DNA from: Frateuria flava
Lineage (GTDB): Bacteria > Pseudomonadota > Gammaproteobacteria > Xanthomonadales > Rhodanobacteraceae
DNA length: 64,000 bases
NCBI RefSeq assembly: GCF_017837635.1
Contig: NZ_JAGJRS010000034.1
Span: 282,972 to 346,971 of the forward strand
Direction of reading: 5' to 3'
The position numbers and the translations under genes are program-made. How positions within the stretch are numbered: position 1 is the stretch's first letter; the number at the start of each line of letters is the position of its first letter. The notes under the pieces are model-generated. The model ran no database searches and was not told the origin of the DNA. It saw only the letters and a list, made by a program, of their open reading frames with translations. Shown here one piece after another: positions 47-17,050 of this stretch.

Positions 47-1474
47 CTAGCCCGGCATGTCCTCCAGCTCCATGCCCTTGGTCTCGCGCACCGCGAACAC
101 CACGAACAGCAGCGAGATCAGCGCGAACGCGGCATACAGGCCGTAGGCGAAGCTCAACCCTACCTCCGCCAATGCCGGGAAGGTGGAGGTGATCAGGAAG
201 TTGGCCAGCCACTGCGCCGCGGCCGCCACCGCCAGCGCGACCGCGCGGATGCGGTTGGGGAACATCTCGCCCAGCAGCACCCACACCATCGGTCCCCAGC
301 TCAGCCCGAAGAACACCACGTAGGCGTTGGCCGCGACCAGCGCGACCATGTTCCACGGGGCGGGCAGGGTGAGGCTCGCGCCCGTGCCGACTGACTGCGA
401 GAAGCACCAGGCCATCAACGCAAGGGTGACGGTCATGCCGGCCGAGCCGATCGCAAGCAGCGGCTTGCGGCCGAGCTTGTCGACCAGCGCGATGGCCACC
501 AGCGTCACCAGCACGTTGACGATCGAGGTGATCACCGTGATCGAGAACGAATCGGCCTCGCTGAAACCTACCGAATGCCACAGCGCCGAGGAGTAATAGA
601 AGATCACGTTGATGCCGACGAACTGCTGGAACACCGACAGCAGGATGCCGACCCACACCACCGGCAGCAGGCCCAGCCGCGGGCCGCGCAGGTCGCGCAG
701 GCGCGGGCGGTATTCCATCTTCAGGCTGCGCTCGATCTCGCCCAGCTTGTAGTCCAGCGCGGCCTCGCTGCGCATGGCCAGCACCCTGCGCAGTACGTCG
801 CGGGCTTCGGCCAGGCGCCCGCGCGCGACCAGGTGGCGCGGCGATTCGGGCACGCCAAGCACCAGCGCGCCGTAGACCAGCGCCGGCACCACGGCGACCA
901 GAAACATCCAGCGCCAGGCTTCCAGCCCGAACCAGAGCTTCGCCGAGGCCCCGCCGGCCGTGGCGGCGAGCCACGCGTCGCTGAGCAGCGCGGCGAAGAT
1001 GCCGAGCACGATCGCCAGCTGCTGCAACGAGCCAAGCCGTCCGCGCACGTGCGCCGGGGAAACCTCGGCGATATAGGTCGGCGCGATCACCGATGCCATG
1101 CCCACGCCGACGCCACCAACGACGCGCCACAGGATCAGGTCCCACATGCCGGTGACCAGGCCCGAGCCGATCGCACTGGCGGCCAGCAGCAGTGCGGCGA
1201 CCTGCATGGTGCGCACGCGGCCCAGGCGGTCGGCCAGCGTGCCGGCGTACCAGGCGCCGGCGGCCGAGCCGAGCAGGGCGCAGGACACGGCCAGCCCGAT
1301 CCGGGCGGCATCCAGCTCGAAGCCGCCACGGATCGCTTCCACGGCGCCGTTGATGACGGCCGTGTCGAAACCGAACAGGAAGCCGCCCAGCGCCGCCGCG
1401 GCGGCGATGAGCACGATGCGGGCCGTGGCCCGTTGTTCCAGTGCCAGGTCGACTGGCGTCTCCCGCGTACTCAT
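47..1474 (-). CDS. MFS sugar porter (glucose/hexose:H+ symporter type)
   Basis: A 475-residue inner-membrane transporter of the sugar porter branch of the MFS (XylE/Glf/GlcP relatives), probably importing a monosaccharide with protons. Family signatures visible are the loop ADRLGR after helix 2, PESPRH ending the first half, QQFVGIN in helix 7, DKLGRKP between helices 8 and 9, GPMVWVLLGEMFPNRIRA in helix 10 and a closing ETKG. About 12 hydrophobic segments fit the fold. The ATG is preceded by a GGGGGA ribosome site. It diverges from the LacI-type gene at 1630, with an operator copy between them (1546-1559). Glucose released by the glucosidases of the locus is the likely substrate, but the exact sugar is inference. 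Confidence 0.9.
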   Translation of the reverse strand: MSTRETPVDLALEQRATARIVLIAAAAALGGFLFGFDTAVINGAVEAIRGGFELDAARIGLAVSCALLGSAAGAWYAGTLADRLGRVRTMQVAALLLAASAIGSGLVTGMWDLILWRVVGGVGVGMASVIAPTYIAEVSPAHVRGRLGSLQQLAIVLGIFAALLSDAWLAATAGGASAKLWFGLEAWRWMFLVAVVPALVYGALVLGVPESPRHLVARGRLAEARDVLRRVLAMRSEAALDYKLGEIERSLKMEYRPRLRDLRGPRLGLLPVVWVGILLSVFQQFVGINVIFYYSSALWHSVGFSEADSFSITVITSIVNVLVTLVAIALVDKLGRKPLLAIGSAGMTVTLALMAWCFSQSVGTGASLTLPAPWNMVALVAANAYVVFFGLSWGPMVWVLLGEMFPNRIRAVALAVAAAAQWLANFLITSTFPALAEVGLSFAYGLYAAFALISLLFVVFAVRETKGMELEDMPG

Positions 1475-1545
1475 CCGTTCTTCCCCCGAAGGTCCCAGGA
1501 ATACATCTGGTGCGAGTCTGGCTGCTGCCGTGTTCGGCGTCCGGC

Positions 1546-1559
1546 TGAATACGTATGCA
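1546..1559. promoter_or_regulatory. Predicted LacI-family operator, copy 1
   Basis: TGAATACGTATGCA, a near-palindrome centred on ACGT. The identical 14-mer, or its exact complement, recurs at 11905, 16785 and 16945, each time in front of an alpha-glucan gene. This copy lies between the divergent sugar porter and LacI-type genes and could control both, including autoregulation. LacI-family proteins bind such central-CG palindromes. The link to the product of the gene at 1630 is inference from proximity. Confidence 0.75.
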
Positions 1560-1629
1560 TGGGTGCCGGCACGCCGCGACGGGCCGATGGTAATGTTGTG
1601 CGAGCCGCCAGGACCAGAGGTTCGCCGCA

Positions 1630-2661
1630 GTGAGCAAGGCCAAAGCGACGTCGATCGACATCGCCCACCTGGCGGGGGTATCCCAGGCCACGGTATCGCG
1701 CGCCCTGCGCGGCAGTCCGCTGGTCAGCCAGGAAACCCGCGAGCGTATCCGCGCGGCGGCGGAGCAGCTCAACTACAAGGTCGACAAGAACGCCTCCAAC
1801 CTGCGCCTGCAGCATTCGGGCACGCTGGCGTTGCTGCTGTTCGAGGACCCGACGACCGACGGGTCGAACATCAACCCGTTCTTCCTCTCGATGCTCGGCT
1901 CCATCACCCGCGCCTGCGCGCAGCTGGGCTACGACCTGCTGGTGTCCTTCCAGCAGTTCTCCAACGACTGGCACGCCGACTACGCCGACAGCAAGAAGGC
2001 CGACGGCATCATCCTGCTCGGCTACGGCGATTACCTGGCCTATCGCGCGCGGCTGGAAAAGCTGGTGGAGATTGGCACGCGCTTCGTGCGCTGGGGCGCC
2101 GTGCAGCCGGACCAGCCGGGCGTTTCGGTCGGCTGCGACAACTTCAGCGGTGGCCAGGCGGTCGCACGGCACTTCATCGAACAGGGCTGCCGGCGGATTG
2201 CGTTCCTGGGTGACGCCTCCAGCCACTATCCGGAATTCTTCGAGCGCTACCGTGGCTATGCTCAGGCGCTGCAGCAGGCCGGGCTGGAGGTGGACGAAGC
2301 CTTGCAGGTGGATGCCGAAAGCACGCAGCTGTGCGGCCATACGGCGATGTCGGAACTGATCGCGCGCGAGGTGGCGTTCGACGCGGTGTTCGCGGCCAGC
2401 GACCTGATCGCCATCGGCGCGATGAGCGCGCTGGCCGAGCACGGCTACAAGGTGCCGGTCGACGTGCCGGTCGCCGGCTTCGATGACATTCCGATGGCGC
2501 GCTTCGCCAGCCCACCGCTCACCACCGTGCTGCAGGACACGCGCAGCGCGGGCGAGGTATTGGTCCAGAACCTGCTGATGATGATCCGCGGCGAACCGGC
2601 CCAGAGCGTGATGCTGCCGGTGAAGCTGATGGTGCGGCAGTCGAGCGTGCGCCCCAGTTAA
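1630..2661 (+). CDS. LacI-family transcriptional regulator of the alpha-glucan locus
   Basis: A 343-residue LacI/GalR-type regulator. The N-terminal helix-turn-helix and hinge read SIDIAHLAGVSQATVSRALR at residues 9-28, with the family signature VSxxTVSR. A periplasmic-binding-protein-like sensor domain fills the rest (for example GVSVGCDNFSGGQAVARHF and VPVAGFDDIPMARFASPPLT). The start is GTG at 1630, with an AGAGG-like ribosome site. It lies divergent to the sugar porter. Four identical palindromic sites in the neighbourhood make it the likely local repressor of starch/maltodextrin use, released by an internal sugar. The effector is not visible from sequence. Confidence 0.92.
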   Translation: MSKAKATSIDIAHLAGVSQATVSRALRGSPLVSQETRERIRAAAEQLNYKVDKNASNLRLQHSGTLALLLFEDPTTDGSNINPFFLSMLGSITRACAQLGYDLLVSFQQFSNDWHADYADSKKADGIILLGYGDYLAYRARLEKLVEIGTRFVRWGAVQPDQPGVSVGCDNFSGGQAVARHFIEQGCRRIAFLGDASSHYPEFFERYRGYAQALQQAGLEVDEALQVDAESTQLCGHTAMSELIAREVAFDAVFAASDLIAIGAMSALAEHGYKVPVDVPVAGFDDIPMARFASPPLTTVLQDTRSAGEVLVQNLLMMIRGEPAQSVMLPVKLMVRQSSVRPS

Positions 2662-2673
2662 TCCCCATCTCCC

Positions 2674-2729
2674 TGCAGGAGCGCTCGCGACCCGGACACT
2701 CCGTCGCGACCAAGGGCGCTGCTACAAGG
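2674..2729. repeat. REP-type palindrome
   Basis: Imperfect inverted repeat from TGCAGGAGCGCTCGCGACC to GTCGCGACCAAGGGCGCTGC. It lies between the convergent LacI-type gene and the esterase gene and overlaps the esterase 3' end. It may serve as a bidirectional mRNA 3' end. Confidence 0.65.
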
Positions 2730-3753
2730 AAGGCGATGGGCGCGGCGGAAAAGCCCAGCGCAGGAATGCCGGCAGCATCTTCGCCCAGGAGGCCTGCTGG
2801 TGATGCCCGCCCGGCAACAGGAACACCGTCACGTCGGCACCCGGACCGGTGGTGGCGTAGCCGAGCTGGCGCAAGCCTCCGCGCTGCACACCCTCGCCGC
2901 GGTAGCCATCGACCAGATCCTGCAGATCATCGATCACGTCGATCACGCCATCGTGGTCGCGATCGTTCGTTTCTTCGGCCGTGCCTGCCGCGAACCAGAA
3001 TTTCAGCCCCTCGCGCCGTGGACCGCGATCGACCATCGCCTGCGCCAGCCGCGTGCGCTGCACCGCCGAGGCGTCACTGCGATCGCCCGCCAGCCAGAAC
3101 GACGGCGACATGGCGCCGACCTGGCCGAACACGTCCGGATATTCCCAGCCCAGGTTGAACGCGTTGAGCGCGCCCAACGACCAGCCCATCACCGTGCGCT
3201 GCCGGGCGTTGGCGCGCGTGCGGTAGTGCGTGTCGATGTACGGCACCAGCGAAGTGGCGATCCACGAGGAGTAATCGGCCGCCCTCAGGCCGATCGCACC
3301 GATCCTCGATCCGCCGACCACGCTCTGTCCGCGCTGGCGATCGGAAAGCCCGTAGCCGCTGGCGCGGTCCCGCAGCATGTCGATGGCGACGACAATGATG
3401 GGTTCGATCGCGTGTTCTCCATAGAGCGTCGCCAGGGTCGGCTGCAGTCCGACCGCCTGCATGTCCTGGCCATCGTTGGCGTACAGCACCGGATAACGGG
3501 CGGTCGAGTCCGGATAGCCGGGCGGGAGGTAGACCGTGATGTGGATGCGCTCGGGCGCGAAGGCGGGCGCATCCAGTTCGAGCTTCCGAACCTGCGCATG
3601 CAGTGCGCAGGGAAGCAGCAGGAGCAAGGCCAGCCACCCGCGCCCGCCTGCCTTTTGCAGGAGCCCGGCTGCGGACGATGCTTTTGTGGCACGCCCACCA
3701 AGGGCATCGCCCGCAAGCGCGCTCCTGCAGGAAGTGCGGCGGCGGTCATTCAT
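2722..3753 (-). CDS. Secreted alpha/beta-hydrolase of the esterase D/enterochelin esterase type
   Basis: A 343-residue alpha/beta-hydrolase with the nucleophile elbow GWSLGA (about residue 192) and a late GGHH segment that would supply the catalytic histidine. The hydrophobic run WLALLLLLPCALHA near residues 40-53 looks like a signal peptide. The only in-frame ATG overlaps the last 8 bases of the amylase gene, so translational coupling is likely. Between that ATG and the signal peptide lie about 25 residues encoded by a REP element (3656-3730), an odd N-terminal extension; a non-ATG start inside it is possible. Related proteins act as esterases on acylated sugars or siderophores. The substrate is unknown, and the operon position suggests an alpha-glucan or acylated oligosaccharide role. 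Confidence 0.75.
   Translation of the reverse strand: MNDRRRTSCRSALAGDALGGRATKASSAAGLLQKAGGRGWLALLLLLPCALHAQVRKLELDAPAFAPERIHITVYLPPGYPDSTARYPVLYANDGQDMQAVGLQPTLATLYGEHAIEPIIVVAIDMLRDRASGYGLSDRQRGQSVVGGSRIGAIGLRAADYSSWIATSLVPYIDTHYRTRANARQRTVMGWSLGALNAFNLGWEYPDVFGQVGAMSPSFWLAGDRSDASAVQRTRLAQAMVDRGPRREGLKFWFAAGTAEETNDRDHDGVIDVIDDLQDLVDGYRGEGVQRGGLRQLGYATTGPGADVTVFLLPGGHHQQASWAKMLPAFLRWAFPPRPSPSL
3656..3730. repeat. Divergent REP-type palindrome inside a reading frame
   Basis: The outer arms TGCAGGAGC and GCGCTCCTGCA flank a degenerate centre with AAGGGCATCGCCCGC. It lies in the amylase/esterase junction and is read in frame as residues of the esterase N-terminus (CRSALAGD...AAGLLQ). The peptide resembles the one encoded by the REP at 29387 (CRSALGRD...RPRALLQ), which shows common ancestry of the repeats. 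Confidence 0.6.
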
Positions 3754-5434
3754 CCGGATGGCTCTTGTCGCGCATCAGGCGGGTCAGCTCGGCGACGAGC
3801 TCGGTGCGGGTGGCCGGCGCGTCGAGCAGGTACACCGCCACATCGTGCGGCCCCACTTTTGCGTCTAGCGCGCCGCCCGCCGCCACGTCGACCGCTGCGC
3901 CACCCAGCGCTGCCTGCCAGCGTCCCGGCTGCAGGTACCTGGTCACATGGAACCGCGCGGCCTGGTCGCCCTTGTTGAGCAAGACCAGCGCGATCTGGTG
4001 CAGGCCGTCTTTCTGGTAGACGCGATAGAACGCCGCCTGGTCGCCGCCCATGTGCTCGACCAGCATCAGCCCGCGTTGCAGTGCCGGGGTGCGTTCACGC
4101 AGGTTGGCGATGCGCTTGAGCTGGCGGTAGATCGAGCTCCTGCCGGCCGCGTCGATGCGCGCCTGGCCGTAGTAGTTGCGGTTGCCCTCGTGCTCGGCCC
4201 GGCCGCGCTCGAAGCCGGTTTCCGAACCGTAGTAGACCGCCGGAATACCGCGAGTGGTGAACAACCAGTTGTTGGCGTCGATGAAGCCATGGTCGCTGGC
4301 GTCCATGCGCGCCATGTCGTGGTTGTCGTAAAAGGTGACCAGCTCGTACGGGTTGGCGTACGGGCCGTTGGTCAGGTAGAGCTTCGACTGCAGCAGGCCG
4401 TAGTCGCTGCCGGGGCGCTCGAATACCGCCTTGATCGCGCCCTGCTGAGGGAAGTCGAGCAGGCTGATGCCGCCGTTCCTGGCCCAGGTGTACTTGCCGA
4501 TGTTGTCCGGGCTGTAGTCGAACGCCTCGCCATACATGAAGAAGCCGGGGTGCTTGGCGCGGATGCGCGCGGAGAACTGCCGCCAGAACGCGGTCGACAT
4601 GTGGCTGATGGTGTCGATGCGGAAGGCGTCCGCGCCCTGGTCGATCCATTTGAGATACGCGCCGGTGAAGTAGTCCAGCACCGCGGGGTTGGACTCGTCG
4701 TTGTTGGACAGCTGCGCCAGGTCCTCGTACGCGTGGTAGAAGCGGTGCAGCGGGTTGTGGCGCGGGTCGAGCTGCCAGGGCGGCAGGTTCTGCTCGTCGG
4801 CAATCAGCTTGCCGTGTTCGTCGAAGATCTGCCCGAACTGCGGCTGGCGCTCCGGCATCGTGAAGGCCGGCGAGCCGTGGTTGAGCACGATGTCCTGCAC
4901 GACATTCAGTCCGACCTTGTGCATGCCGGCGGTGAACTGCGCGAAGTCCAGATCCTTGCTGGGCAGGTGTTCGTCGAGCTTGTAGAAGTTGACGCCCCAG
5001 TAGCCGTGGAAGCCGGTCTTGCCGCGGTCGGAGAACTTCGAGCCCCAGCTCACCGGGTCGCCACCGGTAAAGGCCTGGTCGGGGTTGTCCACGATCGGCG
5101 TGATCCACACCGCACCGAAGCCCATGCCGCGGATGTAGCCGGCGTTGTTCAGCACGCCTTTGAAGTCGCCACCCAGGTAGCCGATGTTCGCGCTCTGCCC
5201 CTTGGGCGCACCCGGTACCGGGATGTCGAAGGTGCGGTGCGCGCCACCCTGGTCGCGATGGTCGTTGGACGGGTCGCCATCGACGAAGCGGTCGGTCATC
5301 ACGAAGTAGATGGCGTTCGCGGCGAACGGCGCGGCCGTGCCATAGAACGCGCGCTGCGACGGCGACGTGGCTGCCTGCGCCATTGCGGAAGTCAGCGCGA
5401 GCGCCAGGCCGAGGGAGAAGGGGAGGGCTTTCAT
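3746..5434 (-). CDS. Secreted alpha-amylase, GH13 family
   Basis: A 562-residue GH13 enzyme with a signal peptide ending AMAQA. Its (beta/alpha)8 motifs are complete: DIVLNH (residues 181-186), GADAFRID with nucleophile D274, GEAF with acid/base E303, and FYDNHD with D373. The start AIYFVMTDRFVDGD is typical of bacterial alpha-amylases and cyclodextrin-type enzymes with calcium-site loops. It should cut internal alpha-1,4 bonds of starch or maltodextrin in the periplasm or outside. The ATG at 5434 was chosen because it begins the signal peptide; the open frame continues upstream without meaning. It follows the MFS permease after a REP hairpin and overlaps the esterase start. Confidence 0.92.
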   Translation of the reverse strand: MKALPFSLGLALALTSAMAQAATSPSQRAFYGTAAPFAANAIYFVMTDRFVDGDPSNDHRDQGGAHRTFDIPVPGAPKGQSANIGYLGGDFKGVLNNAGYIRGMGFGAVWITPIVDNPDQAFTGGDPVSWGSKFSDRGKTGFHGYWGVNFYKLDEHLPSKDLDFAQFTAGMHKVGLNVVQDIVLNHGSPAFTMPERQPQFGQIFDEHGKLIADEQNLPPWQLDPRHNPLHRFYHAYEDLAQLSNNDESNPAVLDYFTGAYLKWIDQGADAFRIDTISHMSTAFWRQFSARIRAKHPGFFMYGEAFDYSPDNIGKYTWARNGGISLLDFPQQGAIKAVFERPGSDYGLLQSKLYLTNGPYANPYELVTFYDNHDMARMDASDHGFIDANNWLFTTRGIPAVYYGSETGFERGRAEHEGNRNYYGQARIDAAGRSSIYRQLKRIANLRERTPALQRGLMLVEHMGGDQAAFYRVYQKDGLHQIALVLLNKGDQAARFHVTRYLQPGRWQAALGGAAVDVAAGGALDAKVGPHDVAVYLLDAPATRTELVAELTRLMRDKSHPDE

Positions 5435-5496
5435 GGGCTGTGTCTCGATGTCAGATGCGCTTTCCCGCAGGGTGCCGAAGTCAGGCGGGCGCTTTT

Positions 5497-5558
5497 GCAC
5501 GAGCGCACCCTGTGCGCGACCGCCAGCGGCACGGTCGCGCACACGGTGCGCTCTTACA
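5497..5558. repeat. REP-type palindrome
   Basis: Long inverted repeat with left arm GAGCGCACCCTGTGCGCGAC and right arm GTCGCGCACACGGTGCGCTC, loop CGCCAGCGGCACG. The arms carry compensated changes (ACCC/GGT) against the commoner CCCTTGGG version, so the hairpin rather than the sequence is conserved. It overlaps the stop codon of the permease at 5554 and separates it from the amylase. Confidence 0.75.
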
Positions 5559-7065
5559 GAGGATCCGGCGCTGGCGGTACAGGAGTGGCGGTGGGTTGGG
5601 AAGCCGCTTCCGGCTCGCGCACGCGCAGCGTGCACAGGCCGGCCACGACCAGGCTGGCGCCGCCCAGGGCCAGCGCCCAGATCGGCTGGCCGTGGAAGAA
5701 GGTCTTCAGCAGCAGCCCGAGCACGCTGGCGGCCAGCAGCTGCGGGATCACGATGAAGAAATTGAAGATGCCCATATACACGCCCATCTTGGCTGCCGGC
5801 AGGTTGTCCGACAGCAGCGCATAGGGCAGCGACAGGATCGAAGCCCACGCGAAACCCACGCCGACCATGGAGGCGATGAGCCAGCGTGCATCGTGCAGCA
5901 CCACGAACGACAGCAGGCCTGCACCGCCCAGGCACAGATTGACCAGATGGCTGATGCGCAAGCCCCAACGCCGCACCATCCACGGGATCAGCAAGGCCGC
6001 CGGCACGGTCACGCCGTTGTAGACGGCAAACAGCACGCCGCCCCAGTTGGCCCCTTCGTTGTACGCCGCGCTGGTGGTGTCCGTGCTGCCGAAAAAGCTT
6101 TGCGCCACCCCCTGGGTGGTGTAGATCCACATCGCGAACAGCGCGAACCAGGAAAAGAACTGCACCCAGGCCAGCCGGCGCATCGGCGCGGGCATCCCGT
6201 ACAGATCGCTCATCACCTGCTGCGGCATGCCGCGGCTGCGGGTGAAGGCGACCCAGACGAACAGCAACCCGAACACGGCCAGCCCGCCACCGAGCAGGTA
6301 CAGCTCCTTCTCCAGCCCGAAACGGGCAATCGCCAAGAGCAGCGCGACGCCCAGCGCCAGCAATACCGCACCCGGGCGCCAGGCATCGGAGGTATCGACC
6401 GGCGCATCGGCGGGCGCCTCGTCGGCCTGTTCGCGCAATAGCTGCGGCGGATATTCCGGGCTGGTGGCGATGGTCCACAGCACCGCGCCAAGCAGCACCA
6501 CGCCGCCGGCGTAGAAGGCGTATTTGACCGTGTCCGGCACGCCCCCGGCGGAGGCGACGTTGGCCACACCGAACTTCGCCAGCAGCCAGGGCAGGGCGGA
6601 GGCGACCACTGCGCCCACGCCGATGAAGAAGCTCTGCATGGCATAGCCGAGCGGGCGCTGGCGCGCCGGCAACTGGTCGCCGACGAAGGCGCGGAAGGGT
6701 TCCATCGATACGTTGATCGAGGCATCCATGATCCACAGCAGCCCGGCGGCGATCCACAGCGAAGGCGCATTGGGCATCCACAAGAGCGCCAGCGTGGTCA
6801 GCACCGCGCCGACCAGAAAATAGGGCCGGCGCCGGCCAAGCCGGTTCCAGGTGTGGTCGGACAAATGTCCGACGATCGGCTGCACGATCAGGCCGGTCAG
6901 CGGGGCGGCCACCCACAGGATCGGGATGTCGGCCACGTCCGCGCCCAGGGTCTGGAAGATGCGGCTGACGTTGGTATTCTGCAGGGCGAAGCCGAACTGG
7001 ATGCCAAGAAAGCCGAAACACATGTTCCAGATCTGCCAGAAAGACAGGGCGGGTTTGTTGGTCAT
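5554..7065 (-). CDS. MFS maltose/oligosaccharide permease (SUT/MalY-like)
   Basis: A 503-residue secondary transporter of the glycoside-cation symporter/SUT type. It starts with SFWQIWNMCFGFLGIQFGFA, followed by QPIVGHLSDHTWNRLGRRRPY, the typical helix 2-3 loop of sucrose/maltose permeases in Xanthomonadales and Caulobacter (MalY). About 12 membrane segments are visible. Operon context indicates import of maltose or maltodextrin from periplasm to cytoplasm, where the GH13 glucosidase at 17051 would hydrolyse it. It lies between the six-hairpin protein gene and the amylase, with REP hairpins on both sides. The substrate is inferred. Confidence 0.88.
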   Translation of the reverse strand: MTNKPALSFWQIWNMCFGFLGIQFGFALQNTNVSRIFQTLGADVADIPILWVAAPLTGLIVQPIVGHLSDHTWNRLGRRRPYFLVGAVLTTLALLWMPNAPSLWIAAGLLWIMDASINVSMEPFRAFVGDQLPARQRPLGYAMQSFFIGVGAVVASALPWLLAKFGVANVASAGGVPDTVKYAFYAGGVVLLGAVLWTIATSPEYPPQLLREQADEAPADAPVDTSDAWRPGAVLLALGVALLLAIARFGLEKELYLLGGGLAVFGLLFVWVAFTRSRGMPQQVMSDLYGMPAPMRRLAWVQFFSWFALFAMWIYTTQGVAQSFFGSTDTTSAAYNEGANWGGVLFAVYNGVTVPAALLIPWMVRRWGLRISHLVNLCLGGAGLLSFVVLHDARWLIASMVGVGFAWASILSLPYALLSDNLPAAKMGVYMGIFNFFIVIPQLLAASVLGLLLKTFFHGQPIWALALGGASLVVAGLCTLRVREPEAASQPTATPVPPAPDPL

Positions 7066-7092
7066 CCGGGCGTTCCGTGGCGTGGTTGTTCC

Positions 7093-7153
7093 GCAGGAGC
7101 GCCCTTGGGCGCGACCGCGATATCCGGGTCGCGCCCAAGGGCGCTACTGCAAG
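7093..7153. repeat. REP-type palindrome, near-perfect copy
   Basis: Arms GGAGCGCCCTTGGGCGCGAC (7096-7115) and GTCGCGCCCAAGGGCGCTAC (7128-7147) around a short loop. It lies in the 97-base gap between the six-hairpin protein gene and the permease. It can form a very stable RNA hairpin with no following T-run, which suits mRNA stabilisation or processing rather than simple termination. Confidence 0.8.
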
Positions 7154-7162
7154 GTGGCGTGG

Positions 7163-9334
7163 TCAAAGCGGGGCGATCAACAAGTCACCGACATCGGCCT
7201 CGTTCAGCGGTCCGCCGTCGCCGCCCGCGCCACCGGTGTAGTGGACGTTGTGGCGCAGGTAGCTCATGTTGAAGCCGTCCTCCAGGCTGAAACGGCAGCC
7301 CGCGCCGGCCTTCGCGCTGAAGTCGGCCCAGGTGGAGTGCTGGCGGCCGTCGCTGTGCGGCATCACCAGCGGCAGGCGCTGCACGCTGCCGTCGCCGCAA
7401 TCGACCACCAGCCACTTCACCGCGGCGGTGATGCCGGTGTTGATCGGCCCGTGCGGGTTGGCGTAGTCCAGCATGGCGCGGTAGCGGCCGTTGCTCGGTG
7501 CCGTCCAGTGGCGTGGCCACGCGCCGGCGACGTGCACCCGATCGCCGGGGCAGACCTCGGGGCTGGGCAGCGATTCGATGCCGTGCGCGTCGATGTGGGT
7601 CACGCGCAGGCATTGCAGTGCGGCCGTACGCGCGAGCGTCGCGCTGCCATCGATGGCGCCATGGCGGCGCCCATTGACGTATAGCACGCCCTTGCCGGGG
7701 CTGTGCACGCGCCAGTGATCGCCCTCGGATTCGACCGTGGGCGCCGCCGGCGTGGGGGGCGCGTACAGCGGTGCATGGGTACGCAACGGTTGTTCCGGAA
7801 CCTCGATCGCCTTGAGCGTCACCACGGTGTCGCGCCCTTCCTGCCGGGTCGAGGCGGCGACCAGCAGGTTGCCCTCCAGCGTGGACGGGCGGCGCAGCGT
7901 GATGCGGCGATCCTGCACCGCCAGGTCGATGTGGTCGGCGTCGCCGAACAGCATGGGTACCAGCGACACGGGCAGCTTGGGTTCCACGCGGCCGTCATCG
8001 GTCAGGCCGAACACCCCTTCGATCGCCACGTCCAGGAAACCGGCGACCGACCACAACTGGCGCGGCGAGTTGACGACCGGACCGCTCAGCGGGCCATCAT
8101 CGACGTGGACGCCTTCGGTCAGCAGCTCGTAGTTCTCCATGTTCGACCCGGCCAATGCCGCGCCGCGGATGACCGAGCGAATCTCGTGGGCGATGCGTGC
8201 CGGATCGTCGACTGCCCTTGCCGCACGCAGGGCATACGCGCTGACGAAGGGCCAGATCGCCCGGTTGTGGTAGATCGGCTGGTCCGCGCGCTCGGGCCAG
8301 ATCACCGGGCTGCCCGAGGGCCAGGTCGGATAGTTCGTCAATGCCTGGCGCGCGCGCTCCGGGCCGGCCACTCCGCTGCTGATCGCCAGCGACAGGCCGA
8401 GCAGGTCGTAGGCCTCGACCGGCAGACCGTCGCCGCCGAGATAACTCATGTAGAGGCCGCGGTCCGCACGCCAGAAGTGCGCATTGATCGACGCCTTCAA
8501 CGCCAGGGCCTGGGCGCGATAGCCGGCGGCATGAGGATCGCCGCGCTGATCGGCCAGTCGCGCGGCCAGTTGCAGTGCCTCGACATACAGCACGTTGGTG
8601 GACAGCGCGAACGACTGCGCAATGAAACGCACGTTGTCCGCGGTCCACGCCGGGTAGGTCTGCTCGCGCCAGTCCAGGAAGGACGTCTCGCCTCGGTAGA
8701 GCCCGAACGCTGGATCGAAGGCGTATTGCCGGTCCTGCGCCAGCGTGTCGTCGAGCGCCTGACGCACCCTGGCGGCGAAGCCGGCATCGTCCAGCAGGTG
8801 CCGGGCGCCCAGGAACCACACGATGCGGTCGGTGCTGACCGGCCAGCTGCCGCCCGAACCGGTGTCCTGCATCACGTACAGGCCCTGCGGCGCGGACGGC
8901 ACGCGCACCTCGGACAGCTTGAACTGCAGGCCGTTGCGCGAGCGCGCCGGGTCGAAGCGCCACAAGCCGAGGTCGACCGCATACGACAGGTCGCGGGTCC
9001 ACACGTAGTGCCACTTCTCGCCCGTCTCGAAGCACAGGCAGGGGATGGGCTGGCCGTGGTCGAAGGCGCCATCGCGGATGGCTTCCACCGAATCGTGTCT
9101 GAGGTCGTCCTGCGCCATCGCATACAGGCCGTCGAACAGCACGCTGCCGGTCGCAGCCTCGAGCGGTGGCGCGGGAATCACGCGCTGGCCGCTCGGCCAT
9201 TGGAGCAGGTAGGCGCCGCCAGTCTGGCGCTGCATCGACACGTGCACGCCTTGCCAGTCCAGACCGCTGCGCCAAGCCGCTTCGGGAAGCTGGGGCGCGG
9301 CCGCCATCGAGGCCATCAGCAAAAGGCTCAGCAT
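7163..9334 (-). CDS. Six-hairpin glycosidase-like exported protein
   Basis: A 723-residue protein with a short hydrophobic leader (MLSLLLMASMAAA). The middle resembles (alpha/alpha)6-barrel enzymes such as amylo-alpha-1,6-glucosidase/GH63-like proteins: WHYVWTRDLSYAVDLGLWRF (about residues 108-127), SFLDWREQTYPAWT and NRAIWPFVSAYALRAA. The final 180 residues look beta-rich and may be an accessory or carbohydrate-binding part. It sits between the GH31 alpha-glucosidase and the maltose-type permease in one operon, so a debranching or exo-acting role on alpha-glucan fragments is plausible. No specific family or catalytic pair can be assigned by eye, so the function is inferred. Confidence 0.7.
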   Translation of the reverse strand: MLSLLLMASMAAAPQLPEAAWRSGLDWQGVHVSMQRQTGGAYLLQWPSGQRVIPAPPLEAATGSVLFDGLYAMAQDDLRHDSVEAIRDGAFDHGQPIPCLCFETGEKWHYVWTRDLSYAVDLGLWRFDPARSRNGLQFKLSEVRVPSAPQGLYVMQDTGSGGSWPVSTDRIVWFLGARHLLDDAGFAARVRQALDDTLAQDRQYAFDPAFGLYRGETSFLDWREQTYPAWTADNVRFIAQSFALSTNVLYVEALQLAARLADQRGDPHAAGYRAQALALKASINAHFWRADRGLYMSYLGGDGLPVEAYDLLGLSLAISSGVAGPERARQALTNYPTWPSGSPVIWPERADQPIYHNRAIWPFVSAYALRAARAVDDPARIAHEIRSVIRGAALAGSNMENYELLTEGVHVDDGPLSGPVVNSPRQLWSVAGFLDVAIEGVFGLTDDGRVEPKLPVSLVPMLFGDADHIDLAVQDRRITLRRPSTLEGNLLVAASTRQEGRDTVVTLKAIEVPEQPLRTHAPLYAPPTPAAPTVESEGDHWRVHSPGKGVLYVNGRRHGAIDGSATLARTAALQCLRVTHIDAHGIESLPSPEVCPGDRVHVAGAWPRHWTAPSNGRYRAMLDYANPHGPINTGITAAVKWLVVDCGDGSVQRLPLVMPHSDGRQHSTWADFSAKAGAGCRFSLEDGFNMSYLRHNVHYTGGAGGDGGPLNEADVGDLLIAPL

Positions 9335-9401
9335 GGGTGTTCGAGGCTCCCGGCAGGCATGGGTTTGCGTCGGCGCTCAGCGCGCAGGCGCCCCGGTGAA
9401 A

Positions 9402-9421
9402 GGGCCGTGCGAACACGGCCC
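9402..9421 (-). other. Intercistronic hairpin with UUCG loop
   Basis: A perfect 8-bp stem GGGCCGTG/CACGGCCC. On the minus-strand RNA the loop reads UUCG. No T-run follows, so it is probably an mRNA stability or processing element between the GH31 gene and the next gene rather than a terminator. Confidence 0.5.
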
Positions 9422-9438
9422 GTCCAGCGATGGGCGGC

Positions 9439-11919
9439 TTACTTCACCACGTCGAGCGTGACGGTCTGGCTCTTGCCTGCGGCCACGCGCACCCAGGTCA
9501 CCGGACCGAAGCGGTCTTCGCCGACGGCCCAGCCGTCGTCGGCCGAAGCGCGCAGGGCATCGACGCTGGCAAAGGCTTCCAGCGCACGGCCGTTGCTGCG
9601 CGCCGCCTGTGCGGGCTTGCCGTGGAACTTCAGCAGCCAGGACCTCAGGGCCGGTTGATAACTGCCCTGGGGCGCGGCGAGCGCGAAGGCCACGCTGCCC
9701 TCGTGCGCCTCCATCCGCATGGACTGCAGGAAATACTCGCCCTGCTCGTAGCCGTAGGTCGTGCCGTCGTCGTCGTAGTAATCGAATCCGGTGGCATGGT
9801 CGGCCGGGAACAGCTCCACCGCCAGCTCGGTAAGCGGCCGCTGGCCGACGAAATCCATCACCGGCGCGACCGGGATGATGGCGCCTTCGCGGATGTACAG
9901 CGGGATATCGCTCCAGCGTTCAGCGTCGGCCACGTGCTCGATGGTCTGGCCACCGGCATAGTGCTTGCCACTGAACCAGTCGATCCACTCGCCCGCGGGC
10001 AGGTAGACCGGCTTGGTCGTCTGGCCTTCGTCGACCACCGGCGAGACCAGCAGGCTGTCGCCGAACAACCAGGCATCGATGTCGTTGCGCACGTTCGCAT
10101 CGTTCGGCCAGTCGAACACCAGCGGCCGGACCAGGCCCACGCCGGTGGCGCGACGCTGGTGCTCGTAGCTGTAGATGTAGGGAATCAACGACTGGCGCAG
10201 GCGGATCGCGTCGGTCGCGGCCTTCTCGGCGAGCGGGCCATACACCCATGGCTGACGCTTCTGGTTGTGGTCGCCGTGGACGCGGAAAACCGGGGTGAAA
10301 GCGCCGAACTGGATCCAGCGTGCGTAGTTTTCCGGCGTCGGCGGGCCCTTCTTGAAGCCGCCGCCGTCCATGCCCCACTGCATGGCGCCCACGTTGATGG
10401 CGCTCAGCATGCGCTGGCGCTGGCCGGCCATGGAAGCGAAGCCGGTGAGGATGTCGCCGGACCACAGGCCGTAGGCGTAGCGCTGCGCGCCCAGGTAGAA
10501 GTTGCGGTTGAGCGACCACACGCGAAGGTCGGAAATTTCGCGCTGCCCATCGTAGAGCGCACGCTGCATGTCCATGTGCTGCAGGTCGACGGCGACGTCG
10601 TCCGCCTCGTCGTTCCACCAACCGACCATGCCGGTCTCGAACGAATGCTTGAGCGCCTTGTTGAAGAACCAGGCACGCGCGGCCGGGTCGGCGAAGTCGA
10701 TCTCCCGCACGGTCTTGCCGGAGAAGTAGTCCGGCGCCGGGTCGCTCTGGGCCAGCCAGTAGCCGTGTTCGGTCGCCTCGCGGCCCTCGACGGTATCGAC
10801 GTGGATGCGCGGCTTCATGATGCCGGTCAGGTGCACGCCCTGGGCGTCCAGCAGCGTCTTGAGCTTGCCGCTGTCGCCATCGGGAAACTTCTGCTCGTTC
10901 CAGCGGAACTCGCCGTAGCGGTCCTCGCCCCAGGCCTTCCAGTCGAAGTCGAGGGTGAAGTTGTCCAGCGGGATGTGGCGCGAACGGTAGCCCTCGACGA
11001 TGTCGAGCAGCTCCTGCTGGTCGATGCCCCACTGGCTGTTGGTGAAACCCATCGCCCACTTGGGAAACAGCGGGCTGCGGCCGCTGACCTGGGCCAGCGC
11101 GCCGAAGATCGCGTGCGGGTCGCCCAGGAAGACGTAGTAGTCCAGGCCGCCGTCGAACATGCGCGCGTCGATGCGCGTGTCGCCCAGCGCGATCTGGCCG
11201 CCGACGCCATCGATCAGCACGCCGTAGCCGGCCGTGGTCCATACGAACGGTGCACCCGCGTGGCCCTGTTCACCCGCGGTGACCGGGCGGTAGCCGTCAC
11301 GCAGCAGGCCGGCCGTGGCCGGCTCGGTGGCGTCGAAGCCGCCGATGCCGTACATCGGCTCGCCCTTGGCGTGGATCAGGCTCAGCCGGCCATGGCCCAG
11401 CGAGGTCAGGGCGAACTGGCGCAGCACCGGTGCCTGGCCCGGCACGCCGATGCGCAGCTCGCCATGCTGTTTGTCCCACACGGCCTCCAGCTGTGCGGAA
11501 TGCAACCGGGCTCCGTTCGCATCGTGGGAAACCTCGGCGTTCGGGGGGCTTGCCGCCTGCAGGGCAGGATCGATCACGATCGTCTGCGCTGCCGAGTGAC
11601 CTGCCTTGCGGAACTGCACGTGCAAGGTGTCGGGCGCGGTCAGTTCGACGCGGACCGTGTCGGCGCCCAGGGCAATGTCGAACCCCGGCGCGGTCGGCGT
11701 GAGGGAAGCAGGCCTGGCCAGCGCAGCGTGCGCCCGGGCATGGGAAAGCGATGCAGCAGCGGAAGTGGGGGACACCAGCAATACTCCGACAACAAACCAC
11801 GTGATCGGCCCCGTTGACGCACGCTTGAGCTTTGTGAAGAGCGCGTGCAGGCGGCCGGGGCCGGGCCCATAGTAGGGGCCAGTGCGCGCGTCGCAACACC
11901 CGTTTGCATACGTATTCAT
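9439..11919 (-). CDS. Alpha-glucosidase, GH31 family, exported
   Basis: An enzyme of about 826 residues hydrolysing terminal alpha-glucosidic bonds of maltodextrins (some GH31 act on isomaltose or xylosides). The GH31 TIM barrel shows NFTLDFDWKAWG (substrate site), WWNDEADD with the probable nucleophile near residue 437, and YGLWSGD with the acid/base aspartate near residue 489. An N-terminal beta-sandwich and C-terminal beta domains flank it. A hydrophobic leader (residues 40-56, after KLKR) suggests export. The start is uncertain. The ATG used here lies within the operator at 11905-11918, another in-frame ATG lies three codons upstream (11928), and no ATG, GTG or TTG occurs between it and the leader. 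It probably heads the operon running to the esterase. Confidence 0.87.
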   Translation of the reverse strand: MNTYANGCCDARTGPYYGPGPGRLHALFTKLKRASTGPITWFVVGVLLVSPTSAAASLSHARAHAALARPASLTPTAPGFDIALGADTVRVELTAPDTLHVQFRKAGHSAAQTIVIDPALQAASPPNAEVSHDANGARLHSAQLEAVWDKQHGELRIGVPGQAPVLRQFALTSLGHGRLSLIHAKGEPMYGIGGFDATEPATAGLLRDGYRPVTAGEQGHAGAPFVWTTAGYGVLIDGVGGQIALGDTRIDARMFDGGLDYYVFLGDPHAIFGALAQVSGRSPLFPKWAMGFTNSQWGIDQQELLDIVEGYRSRHIPLDNFTLDFDWKAWGEDRYGEFRWNEQKFPDGDSGKLKTLLDAQGVHLTGIMKPRIHVDTVEGREATEHGYWLAQSDPAPDYFSGKTVREIDFADPAARAWFFNKALKHSFETGMVGWWNDEADDVAVDLQHMDMQRALYDGQREISDLRVWSLNRNFYLGAQRYAYGLWSGDILTGFASMAGQRQRMLSAINVGAMQWGMDGGGFKKGPPTPENYARWIQFGAFTPVFRVHGDHNQKRQPWVYGPLAEKAATDAIRLRQSLIPYIYSYEHQRRATGVGLVRPLVFDWPNDANVRNDIDAWLFGDSLLVSPVVDEGQTTKPVYLPAGEWIDWFSGKHYAGGQTIEHVADAERWSDIPLYIREGAIIPVAPVMDFVGQRPLTELAVELFPADHATGFDYYDDDGTTYGYEQGEYFLQSMRMEAHEGSVAFALAAPQGSYQPALRSWLLKFHGKPAQAARSNGRALEAFASVDALRASADDGWAVGEDRFGPVTWVRVAAGKSQTVTLDVVK
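11905..11918. promoter_or_regulatory. Predicted LacI-family operator, copy 2
   Basis: TGCATACGTATTCA, identical to the copy at 16785 and the exact complement of those at 1546 and 16945. It overlaps the likely start codon region of the GH31 gene, a position suited to blocking transcription start or early elongation. Confidence 0.75.
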
Positions 11920-12171
11920 TCGTGACATGGCGCGGTTTTCCGATGGTGCAGCGCACGATCCGGCGATGCGTATGGAGAGGGGAAAAACGGACTCGGCCGT
12001 ACGGCTGTCGGGTGGGTTTTCACGCTCTGCGGACTTCGCTTGCTGTGAAAGCGACACCCCTGTGGCCGCCATTCCCGCGAAATGGAATCCATCGTCACCT
12101 TGCCCTTCCGAAGCAAAAGGGGGCTCCCGGTTTCGCGGGGGAGACGCCAGGCAAGTGACGGCCTCATGCAT

Positions 12172-13725
12172 TCACTCCAGGACCGCCGAAGCGTAGGCGG
12201 GCAGGTGCAGTTGGCCAGCGACGATCCGGGCGTCCGGTTGGCTGGTCAGGTGCACCTGGTTGAAGCGAGCGAGCGCGCCGGCCAGGCTCAGTGTCTGCGC
12301 CTGGTGCGAAAGGTTGTGCACGACCAGCGCGTGGTCGCCGCCATCGGAAAGCTCCCACACGGCCAGATGGGGGTTGGTCACCTCTGGCACGCTGAGGGCG
12401 CCCTTGCGCAGTACGGGCAGTTCGCGGCGCCAGTCGATCAGCATCCGGTACCAGGCGAGCAGCGAGTGCGCGTCGTCCTGCTGTGCATCCACCGAAACCT
12501 CGGCACTGTCGCCCGCGCTGAAGCGCTTCCAGCGGCTTTCGCCCGTGCCTGACCGCTTGCGGTGCCAGCGCATCGGCTCGCGCAGGTCCGGATCGGGCTT
12601 GGTGCCGCGCATGCCCAGCTCCTCGCCGTAGTAGATGAACGCCTCGCCGGGCAGGGTAAGCAGCATCGCGGCGGCCGTGCGCATGTGCTGCGCATGGCCG
12701 TCGAGCTGGCTCATCACCCGCTCCTGGTCGTGGTTGGAAAGGAAGGGCGCGTCCTGTCCAGTCGGGATGGCGGCGGCAATCCGCCCGAGCAGGGCACCGA
12801 GCGTGCCCGTACGTTCCTCGCGCGCGCTGGCGATGAGCTGACTGGCCAGCGGGAAATCGAACACCGCATCCAGCGGGCCAAACCAGGGTTCCAGCTCGCT
12901 CGGCTGCTCGCGCGTGACCTCGCCGATCAGGTAGACATCCGGATCGGCCTGCTTCATCGCCTGGTGGAAGGATGTCCACCATTGAAGATTCTTGCGCAGG
13001 ACCGCCGGGTCGTCCGTCTGCGTGGCGAAGTCGTAGTACACGTGCTGGGCCGCATCCAGGCGAAAGCCGTCGGCGCCCTGCGCGAGCCAGTAGCGGCCAA
13101 TGTCGTCGATCGCCTCGCGCACGGCGGGCGTGTCGAAGTCGAGGTCCGGCATGGCGCCGGTGAACGTGCCCAGGTAGTGCTGCTTGCCCAGCGCGTGCCA
13201 TGCCGGCCCGCCGGTGGCGCTGGTCGCCGCCAGCTGGGCGCGGGGCCCGGCCCAGGTGTACCAGGCGTGGTGCGGATCGGCCGGGTCGCGGGCGGCGAGG
13301 AACCACGGGTGCTGGTCGCTGGTGTGGTTGACCACCAGGTCCATGATCACCCGGATGCCGCGCGCGTGCGCCGCATCGGTCAACTGGCGGAAATCGGCCA
13401 GCGTGCCGTACTGCGGATGGATCTGCCGATAGTCGGTGACGTCGTAGCCGTGGTAGCTCGGCGAGGGGTTGATCGGCATCAGCCAGATCCCGTCGACGCC
13501 GAGCGACTTCAGGTAGTCGAGCTTGGCGGTGACACCGTCCAGATCGCCGATCCCGTCACCATCGGTGTCGTACCACGCACGCACGAAGATCTCGTACCAA
13601 ACGCCGCTGCGAGCGGCGGGCCGCTCCGGGGTGTCCGATGGCGCCGCGGCATGGAGGTTGCCGACGCCGCAGAGCAGGGCCACGCAAGCCGTCGCGAGGC
13701 TGAGGATGAATCGGTGCTGCTTCAT
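12172..13725 (-). CDS. Secreted GH13 alpha-amylase/alpha-glucosidase
   Basis: A 517-residue GH13 enzyme with a cleavable signal peptide (…NLHAAAPS). The catalytic core is intact: DLVVNHTSDQHPWF (129-142), GFRLDAA with nucleophile D224, LIGEVTRE with acid/base E269, and FLSNHD with D333. The opening VWYEIFVRAWYDTDGDGIGD resembles oligo-1,4-/1,6-glucosidase-like secreted amylases that trim maltooligosaccharides in the periplasm. It follows the TonB-dependent receptor with a 100-base gap holding a hairpin and T-run (13743-13774), so it is probably expressed by partial read-through or its own promoter. It precedes the separately controlled GH31 gene. Confidence 0.92.
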   Translation of the reverse strand: MKQHRFILSLATACVALLCGVGNLHAAAPSDTPERPAARSGVWYEIFVRAWYDTDGDGIGDLDGVTAKLDYLKSLGVDGIWLMPINPSPSYHGYDVTDYRQIHPQYGTLADFRQLTDAAHARGIRVIMDLVVNHTSDQHPWFLAARDPADPHHAWYTWAGPRAQLAATSATGGPAWHALGKQHYLGTFTGAMPDLDFDTPAVREAIDDIGRYWLAQGADGFRLDAAQHVYYDFATQTDDPAVLRKNLQWWTSFHQAMKQADPDVYLIGEVTREQPSELEPWFGPLDAVFDFPLASQLIASAREERTGTLGALLGRIAAAIPTGQDAPFLSNHDQERVMSQLDGHAQHMRTAAAMLLTLPGEAFIYYGEELGMRGTKPDPDLREPMRWHRKRSGTGESRWKRFSAGDSAEVSVDAQQDDAHSLLAWYRMLIDWRRELPVLRKGALSVPEVTNPHLAVWELSDGGDHALVVHNLSHQAQTLSLAGALARFNQVHLTSQPDARIVAGQLHLPAYASAVLE

Positions 13726-13742
13726 GCCGGGCTCCCGCTGGC

Positions 13743-13774
13743 AAAAAAAAGGACCCGCCAGATCGCGCGGGTCC
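13743..13774 (-). terminator. Rho-independent terminator after the TonB-dependent receptor
   Basis: On the minus strand an 8-bp GC stem GGACCCGC/GCGGGTCC is followed by eight T residues. It lies between the receptor stop (13826) and the GH13 start (13725), so it could attenuate transcription into the GH13 gene. Confidence 0.75.
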
Positions 13775-13825
13775 GGGGAGAAAGACGCGCCGGGCGGGCG
13801 GGGAGGTGCATGCCCGGCGCGAGGC

Positions 13826-16651: not shown

Positions 16652-16784
16652 TCTCTCCCCCGGACTTCGAGTCGTTCTGTAGTAGGCATCTGTACCGATG
16701 CGTGTCGTTCTGTAGGCCGGTGCCTGCCTGGCGGACCGGCGCGAGGGGCATGGTAGGTCGCCCCCCGTGGAGCGCACAGCTATA

Positions 16785-16798
16785 TGCATACGTATTCA
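16785..16798. promoter_or_regulatory. Predicted LacI-family operator, copy 3 (receptor side)
   Basis: TGCATACGTATTCA, identical to copy 2. It lies about 135 bases upstream of the TonB-dependent receptor start, implying a long 5' leader if it overlaps the promoter. Confidence 0.75.
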
Positions 16799-16944
16799 TT
16801 GTTGTGCTCTGCATCGAAAACCGCGCCGGGCGTGGTGCGCGCTCGAACGCTGGCGGGGCGGCGACTTTCGTTGGGCCGCAACGGCTCGGCCCGCTTGCGA
16901 GCGCCCTGGCGGCGGTTTTGCTGCGATGCGATGAGGGACCGGCA

Positions 16945-16958
16945 TGAATACGTATGCA
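16945..16958. promoter_or_regulatory. Predicted LacI-family operator, copy 4 (glucosidase side)
   Basis: TGAATACGTATGCA, identical to copy 1. It lies about 90 bases upstream of the GH13 alpha-glucosidase start. The two sites of this divergent region are about 160 bases apart centre to centre, close enough to allow DNA looping by a tetramer. Confidence 0.75.
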
Positions 16959-17050
16959 CATTCGACGGTGGTCGCACAGGGAGCCGCTAAGCTGCCGGCC
17001 ACGCTGCGGCGCGCGCCCTTGCGCGGCGCGGAAAGGAACAGGGATCCGTA

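What the first reader, a model, noticed from the sequence alone, without database searches (positions are those of the whole stretch)
1546..16958. Four identical 14-bp palindromic operators define a LacI-controlled alpha-glucan regulon
TGAATACGTATGCA (or its exact complement) occurs at 1546, 11905, 16785 and 16945, each in the control region of a locus gene (sugar porter/LacI, GH31, TonB-dependent receptor, cytoplasmic glucosidase). Four exact 14-mers in 17 kb, all upstream of related genes, cannot be chance. The LacI-type gene at 1630 is the likely binder.
Basis: partly seen in the sequence, partly recalled or inferred. Interest (0 to 1): 0.72.

Follow-up and report, generated by a model that had tools for sequence, protein, structure and literature searches.

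The report
LacI-type starch switch, probably an activator
Four identical 14-base DNA sites mark the promoters of a starch- and maltodextrin-use gene cluster; the same site recurs in many related bacteria, mostly at one fixed distance from the predicted promoter core, which suggests that its sugar-sensing regulator switches these genes on rather than only blocking them.

Summary
TGAATACGTATGCA occurs exactly four times in the window and nowhere else exactly in the 3.68-Mb genome. It looks like a LacI-type operator with a central CG, but it is an imperfect palindrome. In 61 related genomes the site tracks the locus LacI gene: both 32, site only 1, LacI only 5, neither 23.

New here: in five gene classes, 60 of 62 sites have a TANNNT (-10-like) element 27-31 bases downstream, with no -35 better than shuffled sequence. 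With that window fixed beforehand, 68 of 85 sites from 32 further genomes have it; other 5-base windows hold 0-2. The asymmetric site faces one way in these promoters. Transporter promoters carry it reversed, beside a recognisable -35. Against: CGTase-like genes fit in 2 of 13 and 7 of 10, and a reversed glucosidase class in 0 of 13.

This geometry fits a maltodextrin-responsive LacI-family activator better than a plain repressor. For a similar Xanthomonas locus, the passages I saw only suggest repression. Binding, effector, transcript starts and sign of control are all untested.

The parts
1546..1559 (+). 14-bp site (copy 1), between the divergent sugar porter and LacI genes; faces LacI, reversed with respect to the porter
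   Evidence: exact match; 70 bases from the LacI start and 71 from the porter start
1591..1596 (+). predicted -10 (TAATGT) for LacI, 31 bases after the site
   Evidence: sequence; TANNNT at 30-32 in 5 of 5 Frateuria-group LacI promoters, 4 of 5 within 27-31
1538..1543 (-). predicted -35 (CGGACG) of the porter promoter, 2 bases after the reversed site
   Evidence: sequence; the porter class has a -35 match of 3.68 of 6 on average against 2.09 shuffled
1515..1520 (-). predicted -10 (CAGACT) of the porter promoter
   Evidence: sequence; [CA]AGA[AC]T at 24-26 bases after the site in 22 of 23 porter promoters
47..1474 (-). MFS sugar porter, 475 aa
   Evidence: PF00083 E 7.9e-104; TIGR00879
1630..2661 (+). 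LacI-family regulator, 343 aa, GTG start; proposed binder of the site
   Evidence: PF00356 E 8e-17 and PF13377 E 2.6e-33; co-occurrence with the site
2722..3753 (-). putative esterase, last gene of the minus-strand cluster
   Evidence: PF00756 E 8.5e-25
3746..7138 (-). large CGTase-like GH13 protein, 1130 aa
   Evidence: PF00128 at residues 612-978; best PDB match 6wni, cyclomaltodextrin glucanotransferase, E 9.9e-56
7163..9334 (-). GH63/GH78-like hydrolase of unknown specificity, 723 aa
   Evidence: Pfam hits below the curated cut-offs only; no PDB relative at E up to 1; 18 of 42 upstream regions carry the exact site
9439..11826 (-). GH31 alpha-glucosidase-like protein; start codon uncertain
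   Evidence: PF01055 E 8.3e-68
11869..11874 (-). predicted -10 (TACTAT) for GH31, 30 bases after the site
   Evidence: sequence
11905..11918 (-). 14-bp site (copy 2), upstream of GH31, facing it
   Evidence: exact match
12172..13725 (-). SusG-like GH13 alpha-amylase, follows the TBDR gene
   Evidence: PF00128 E 5.5e-90, PF23915
13826..16651 (-). TonB-dependent receptor; likely start at the Met of MVIDKRN
   Evidence: TIGR01782 E 1.9e-169; translation
16750..16755 (-). predicted -10 (TACCAT) for the TBDR, 29 bases after the site
   Evidence: sequence; TANNNT at 27-31 in 23 of 24 TBDR promoters and 27 of 28 in the held-out set
16785..16798 (-). 14-bp site (copy 3), upstream of the TBDR, facing it
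   Evidence: exact match
16945..16958 (+). 14-bp site (copy 4), upstream of the GH13 glucosidase, facing it
   Evidence: exact match
16988..16993 (+). predicted -10 (TAAGCT) for the GH13 glucosidase, 29 bases after the site
   Evidence: sequence; 11 of 11 and 17 of 17 held-out
17051..18667 (+). GH13 alpha-glucosidase / alpha-glucosyltransferase, 538 aa
   Evidence: best PDB match 6aav, alpha-glucosyltransferase, E 4.2e-273

Best explanation
The 14-mer is the operator of the LacI-family regulator encoded at 1630-2661, which controls one alpha-glucan (starch/maltodextrin) uptake and breakdown regulon: outer-membrane receptor, inner-membrane porter and several glucosidases. In most of the promoters the operator sits a fixed 27-31 bases upstream of a TANNNT -10 element, with no recognisable -35. 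If the -10 is at its usual place, the operator centre lies near position -47, just upstream of where a -35 would be. I infer that the sugar-bound regulator binds there and recruits RNA polymerase, so that receptor and enzymes are activator-dependent, while the porter promoter, which has its own -35 and carries the site reversed, keeps some basal activity so that inducer can enter. Shown: the sites, their conservation, orientation and spacing, and the co-occurrence with the LacI gene. Inferred: binding, the sugar effector, the transcript starts, and activation.
For: Site tracks the LacI ortholog: 32 both, 1 site only, 5 LacI only, 23 neither, of 61 genomes; the five LacI-only genomes hold palindromes 1-3 mismatches away near that gene. 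Even near-palindrome with a central CG, as reported for most LacI-family motifs (PMC4052901, section 9). Recognition helix SQ[ASP]TVSR is kept in the orthologs listed. Upstream of close homologs the best match is bimodal: 0-2 mismatches or mostly background-like values; e.g. porter 23 of 25 exact, GH13 glucosidase 25 of 31 exact (shuffled controls never below 3). Spacing: TANNNT at 27-31 in 60 of 62 sites of five classes against 0.0018 per position elsewhere; the four window sites all fit and 0 of 20,000 shuffles do as well. Held out: 68 of 85, other 5-base windows 0-2 of 85. Orientation: the same element in the reverse direction in 1 of 101 and 2 of 85. No -35: mean best match to TTGACA 2.25 of 6 against 2.16 shuffled, while the porter class scores 3.68 against 2.09. 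Across all 101 contexts no column from -60 to +89, outside the 14-mer and the base before it, exceeded 0.35 bits, so no second shared activator site shows.
Against: No binding, expression or transcript-start data. CGTase-like genes fit in only 2 of 13 discovery sites and 7 of 10 held-out; reversed GH13 glucosidase sites (mostly Pseudoxanthomonas) 0 of 13; porter sites 0 of 22, by a different layout. One held-out TBDR of 28 misses. One genome (G055) has a site and no LacI ortholog. The authors of the X. citri study suggest that its LacI-family regulator represses. The porter-promoter control is a set of closely related promoters. Whether -35 elements are weak in these bacteria in general was not tested.
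Confidence: 0.65

Rival explanations
1. Ordinary LacI-type repressor: it occupies the site without sugar and blocks RNA polymerase; maltodextrin releases it. The fixed spacing reflects a preferred blocking position, and some other factor makes the weak promoters work.
For: Commonest mode in the family (recalled); the starch genes of X. citri are up on starch and its LacI-family regulator is suggested to repress (PMC10714752, passages); the neighbouring sux regulator is a tested repressor of its own locus in Xcc (PMC1790865, passages); the porter-type layout, site next to a -35, would suit repression.
Against: Spacing to the -10 within 27-31 across five or more unrelated gene classes and many genera, with one orientation and no -35, is not needed for blocking; no other shared activator site was seen.
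Confidence: 0.25
2. Another transcription factor, not this LacI protein, binds the 14-mer.
For: No binding data; G055 has one (symmetric) site without the ortholog; a second LacI paralog (about 33% identity) lies beside the site in some genomes.
Against: Co-occurrence (Fisher p 5.5e-11); LacI-type motif shape; no other regulator family was systematically tested, so this stays open.
Confidence: 0.08
3. The 14-mer, preceded by A, is the start of a leader peptide (ATGAATACGTATGCA = MNTYA) and control is at translation.
For: The base before the site is A in 75 of 101 contexts.
Against: Porter-type sites mostly lack that A (1 of 20); the predicted start of transcription lies downstream of the site, so the site would not be in the message; exact invariance at silent codon positions is unexplained.
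Confidence: 0.01

Closest known systems
Maltodextrin/starch TonB-receptor loci of Xanthomonas (XCC2469 locus of X. campestris; XAC2595-XAC2602 of X. citri 306)
   Same: As described in the passages seen: TBDR, MFS porter, LacI-family regulator, CGTase-like protein, XgtA-like glucosidase, an unassigned protein of about 780 aa; induced by maltose or starch.
   Different: The X. citri cluster has a GH97, here there is a GH31; no operator, spacing or activation is described in those passages; the Xanthomonas sequences themselves were not compared here.
LacI-family regulons of RegPrecise (PMC4052901)
   Same: Even palindrome with central CG, sites 30-140 bp before the start codon, local sugar regulon (section 9).
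   Different: Almost invariant asymmetric core, one orientation and fixed spacing to a -10 without -35. 'Xanthomonad' does not occur in that paper's main text.
E. coli Cra (FruR), a LacI-family activator/repressor (recalled, no call)
   Same: LacI-family protein recalled to bind an asymmetric site and to activate when the site lies upstream of the promoter.
   Different: Cra is a global regulator answering fructose phosphates; here a local alpha-glucan regulon with dedicated -35-less promoters. No sequence comparison beyond a weak family hit (NF008452, E 2.2e-19).

Membership tests
LacI-family transcription factor | N-terminal LacI helix-turn-helix plus periplasmic-binding-protein-like sensor domain | tested here: met
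   PF00356 and PF13377 above cut-off; residues 8-338 align to a full-length LacI-family structure, 5ysz
[quoted passage not shown]
   14 bases with central CG, two symmetry-breaking positions; 70, 71 and 92 bases to LacI, porter and glucosidase starts, about 133 to the TBDR Met; GH31 start uncertain
LacI-family operator | bound by the regulator | not testable with these tools
   only co-occurrence
Repressor | removal of the regulator derepresses the targets | not testable with these tools
   no expression data
Activator of -35-less promoters | site at fixed distance upstream of a -10, no -35 | tested here: met
   60 of 62 in five classes and 68 of 85 held-out sites; -35 match as in shuffles; not met by CGTase-like (2 of 13), reversed glucosidase (0 of 13) and porter (0 of 22) classes
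Activator of -35-less promoters | targets need the regulator for expression | not testable with these tools
   no expression data
Xanthomonas-type maltodextrin/starch utilisation locus with TBDR | TBDR, MFS porter, LacI regulator and alpha-glucan hydrolases together | tested here: met
Xanthomonas-type maltodextrin/starch utilisation locus with TBDR | one-to-one orthology with XCC2469 / XAC2595-2602 | not tested
   X. campestris and X. citri sequences were not fetched

The most novel reading that the evidence does not exclude
One invariant asymmetric LacI-type operator is read by orientation: facing the gene, 27-31 bases before a -10 without -35, it makes promoters that depend on the sugar-bound LacI-family protein as activator; reversed, beside a -35, it makes a basally active, differently regulated (perhaps repressed) transporter promoter. 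Orientation of one site would encode the sign or mode of control across a regulon conserved through much of an order of bacteria.
Probability: 0.35. Interest if true: 0.65.

Novelty: new variant of a known kind. Interest (0 to 1): 0.5.

Why it matters
LacI-family proteins are usually taken as repressors when genomes are annotated, and the X. citri starch study did the same for its regulator. If this one is a dedicated activator of -35-less promoters, the sign of regulation would have to be reversed for starch loci in many soil- and plant-associated bacteria. It also gives a simple signature (14-mer, 27-31 bases, TANNNT) for finding members of the regulon, and a natural series of promoters for asking why a presumably dimeric regulator keeps an asymmetric, oriented site.

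Tried and rejected
Leader-peptide reading of ATGAATACGTATGCA: rejected (see rivals). Repeat or mobile-element reading: rejected, since the flanks share nothing beyond the core and the base before it and no further exact copies exist in the genome. DNA looping between paired sites: ten outward pairs with spacings from 66 to 614 bases showed no helical phasing (resultant length 0.32 at 10.5 bp, n = 10), too few to exclude it. Two-mismatch places in the own genome (three) were not counted as sites; the reversed control pattern gave 1 match. My first gene calls by longest open frame were misled by antisense frames and a frame error in the TBDR query, and were replaced by tblastn with window proteins.

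Limits of counts: the neighbour search used window proteins only, so it could find only relatives of this locus; 97 of 101 sites had one within 700 bases, three of the other four (L009, L026, L027) have GH13 proteins beside them and one (L134, 11528) was left unidentified; in the held-out set 9 of 85 had none. The LacI ortholog cut (E at most 1e-100; 37 of 61 genomes) was chosen, at the gap between 1e-103 and 1e-62. The 27-31 window was chosen on the discovery set and fixed. Held-out sites come from 60 stretches of 32 of the 44 genomes beyond the first 61 that had the 14-mer; 12 were not fetched; 2 contexts already in the discovery set were dropped; some held-out genomes look to be of species already present among the named loci. 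Discovery contexts are related by descent and are not independent. The 17 held-out misses are 9 porter sites, 3 sites shared by CGTase-like and reversed glucosidase genes, 1 TBDR, 1 with only a LacI gene on the reverse side, and 3 unidentified. For the five LacI-only genomes, the looser pattern also hits unrelated places, so the 2-3-mismatch variants in L151-L153 are weak.

Papers: PMC4052901 abstract/outline, passages and section 9; PMC1790865 passages; PMC10714752 passages; all others as search listings only. Searches for the operator core with LacI (top 20 of 31 listed), for LacI-family activators (none) and for a LacI/Xanthomonas/maltose activator (none) found no description of this operator; the library holds open-licence papers only.

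Full report
Check of the observation. The 14-mer TGAATACGTATGCA is present exactly at 1546 (+), 11905 (-), 16785 (-) and 16945 (+); at up to 2 mismatches one search finds only these four places, each read on both strands, against 0.11 expected. In the own genome (3.68 Mb) there is no fifth exact copy; one place has 1 mismatch and three have 2. It is an imperfect palindrome: positions 3 and 12 break the symmetry.

Setting. The LacI protein at 1630-2661 is 92% identical to that of Frateuria terrea (which may leave out the genome itself), so the window comes from Frateuria or a close relative. The cluster holds an MFS sugar porter, the LacI regulator, a putative esterase, a CGTase-like protein, a GH63/GH78-like hydrolase of unknown specificity, a GH31, a SusG-like amylase, a TonB-dependent receptor and a GH13 glucosidase whose best PDB match is an alpha-glucosyltransferase.

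Who binds. In 61 related genomes, 33 hold TGMATACGTATKCA and 37 hold a LacI ortholog at E up to 1e-100 (cut chosen at a wide gap). Both: 32; site only: 1 (G055, one symmetric site); LacI only: 5; neither: 23; Fisher p = 5.5e-11. In the five LacI-only genomes, palindromes 1-3 mismatches away lie near the ortholog, for example TGAATACGTTTGCA before the TBDR and the glucosidase of G039; the 2-3-mismatch cases are weak. The motif has the shape reported for LacI-family operators: even length, central CG, 30-140 bp before the start codon (PMC4052901 section 9).

How conserved. Of 109 distinct contexts matching TGNATACGTATNCA, 103 are the asymmetric form; in the 110 loci fetched through the LacI protein, 70 of 70 are, with 5 further contexts at one mismatch. 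Upstream of close homologs the best match is exact or nearly so, or else mostly background-like: exact in 23 of 25 porter, 25 of 31 GH13 glucosidase, 18 of 42 GH63-like, 11 of 47 CGTase-like, 4 of 21 GH31, 4 of 5 TBDR, 5 of 103 LacI, 0 of 7 esterase and 0 of 2 amylase upstream regions. Absence in some classes is expected inside operons, but I did not test that. The LacI gene carries the site only in the window's genus, so autoregulation is not a general feature.

Promoter geometry. Looking downstream in the direction TGAATACGTATGCA, five classes (LacI, GH13 glucosidase, TBDR, GH31, GH63-like) have TANNNT at 27-31 bases in 60 of 62 sites (4 of 5, 11 of 11, 23 of 24, 4 of 4, 18 of 18); the CGTase-like class has it in 2 of 13; the reversed porter class 0 of 22 and the reversed GH13 glucosidase class 0 of 13. 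The background is 0.0018 per position. The four window sites fit at 29, 29, 30 and 31 bases, and none of 20,000 mononucleotide shuffles does as well. With the window fixed, 85 further sites from 32 further genomes were taken: 68 fit, at 27, 28, 29 or 30 bases, and other 5-base windows hold 0-2. By class: TBDR 27 of 28, glucosidase 17 of 17, GH63-like 9 of 9, amylase 1 of 1, CGTase-like 7 of 10, no forward gene identified 7 of 20. In the reverse direction the element occurs in 1 of 101 discovery and 2 of 85 held-out sites.

No -35, except in the porter class. Best agreement with TTGACA at a 16-18 base spacer is 2.25 of 6 on average in 60 forward promoters against 2.16 in shuffles; in 22 porter promoters it is 3.68 against 2.09, with [CA]AGA[AC]T 24-26 bases after the reversed site. 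So two layouts exist: site facing the gene, no -35, -10 at 27-31; and site reversed, abutting a -35. Across all 101 contexts no other column within -60 to +89 exceeded 0.35 bits except the base before the site.

Mechanism. Taking the -10 first base as -12 (convention), the forward site is centred near -47. A site fixed there, in one orientation, in front of promoters without -35, is what an activator that touches RNA polymerase needs, and is not needed for a blocking repressor. I therefore favour a LacI-family activator working with a maltodextrin signal (0.65), with a plain repressor as the main rival (0.25). Both would be induced by starch or maltose, as seen for the similar Xanthomonas loci (passages only). 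The authors of the X. citri paper suggest repression; the passages seen report no test of it. Whether the X. citri regulator is the ortholog of this one was not tested by sequence.

A fifth site, in zwf. A one-mismatch copy, TGAAAACGTATGCA, lies upstream of zwf (glucose-6-phosphate dehydrogenase), facing it, with TACCAT 40 bases on. It is present in 5 of 6 genomes of the genus and in 0 of 55 others. It may tie glucose catabolism to the regulon in this genus; the later spacing is about one helical turn more.

What is not shown. No binding, effector, transcript start or expression was measured. The contexts are related by descent. Several classes do not fit the spacing, as listed. The held-out set covers 32 of 44 available genomes, some perhaps of species already among the named loci.

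Noticed in passing
own genome contig C14:161927-161940 (L005:1501-1514): One-mismatch copy TGAAAACGTATGCA facing zwf, divergent from a GntR-family-like regulator gene; present in 5 of 6 genomes of the genus and 0 of 55 others, with TACCAT 40 bases downstream.
   Followed up: partly
7163-9334: 723-aa hydrolase-like protein with Pfam hits below the cut-offs only and no PDB relative at E up to 1, yet often preceded by the site in relatives; perhaps the counterpart of the unassigned XAC2598.
   Followed up: partly
3746-7138: CGTase-like protein of 1130 aa whose first roughly 600 residues have no Pfam match at E up to 0.001.
   Followed up: no
9439-11930: The GH31 gene has no clear start codon between the predicted transcript start and the conserved region; in-frame ATGs lie at or upstream of the site.
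   Followed up: no
L090, L108, L187, L191, L199: A second LacI-family gene (about 33% identical where measured) lies divergent to the GH63-like or CGTase-like gene, next to the same site.
   Followed up: no
L120, L121, L124, L129, L131 and others: In Pseudoxanthomonas and some relatives the GH13 glucosidase carries the site reversed, with a conserved TGGAATAGTGG further downstream: a third promoter layout.
   Followed up: partly
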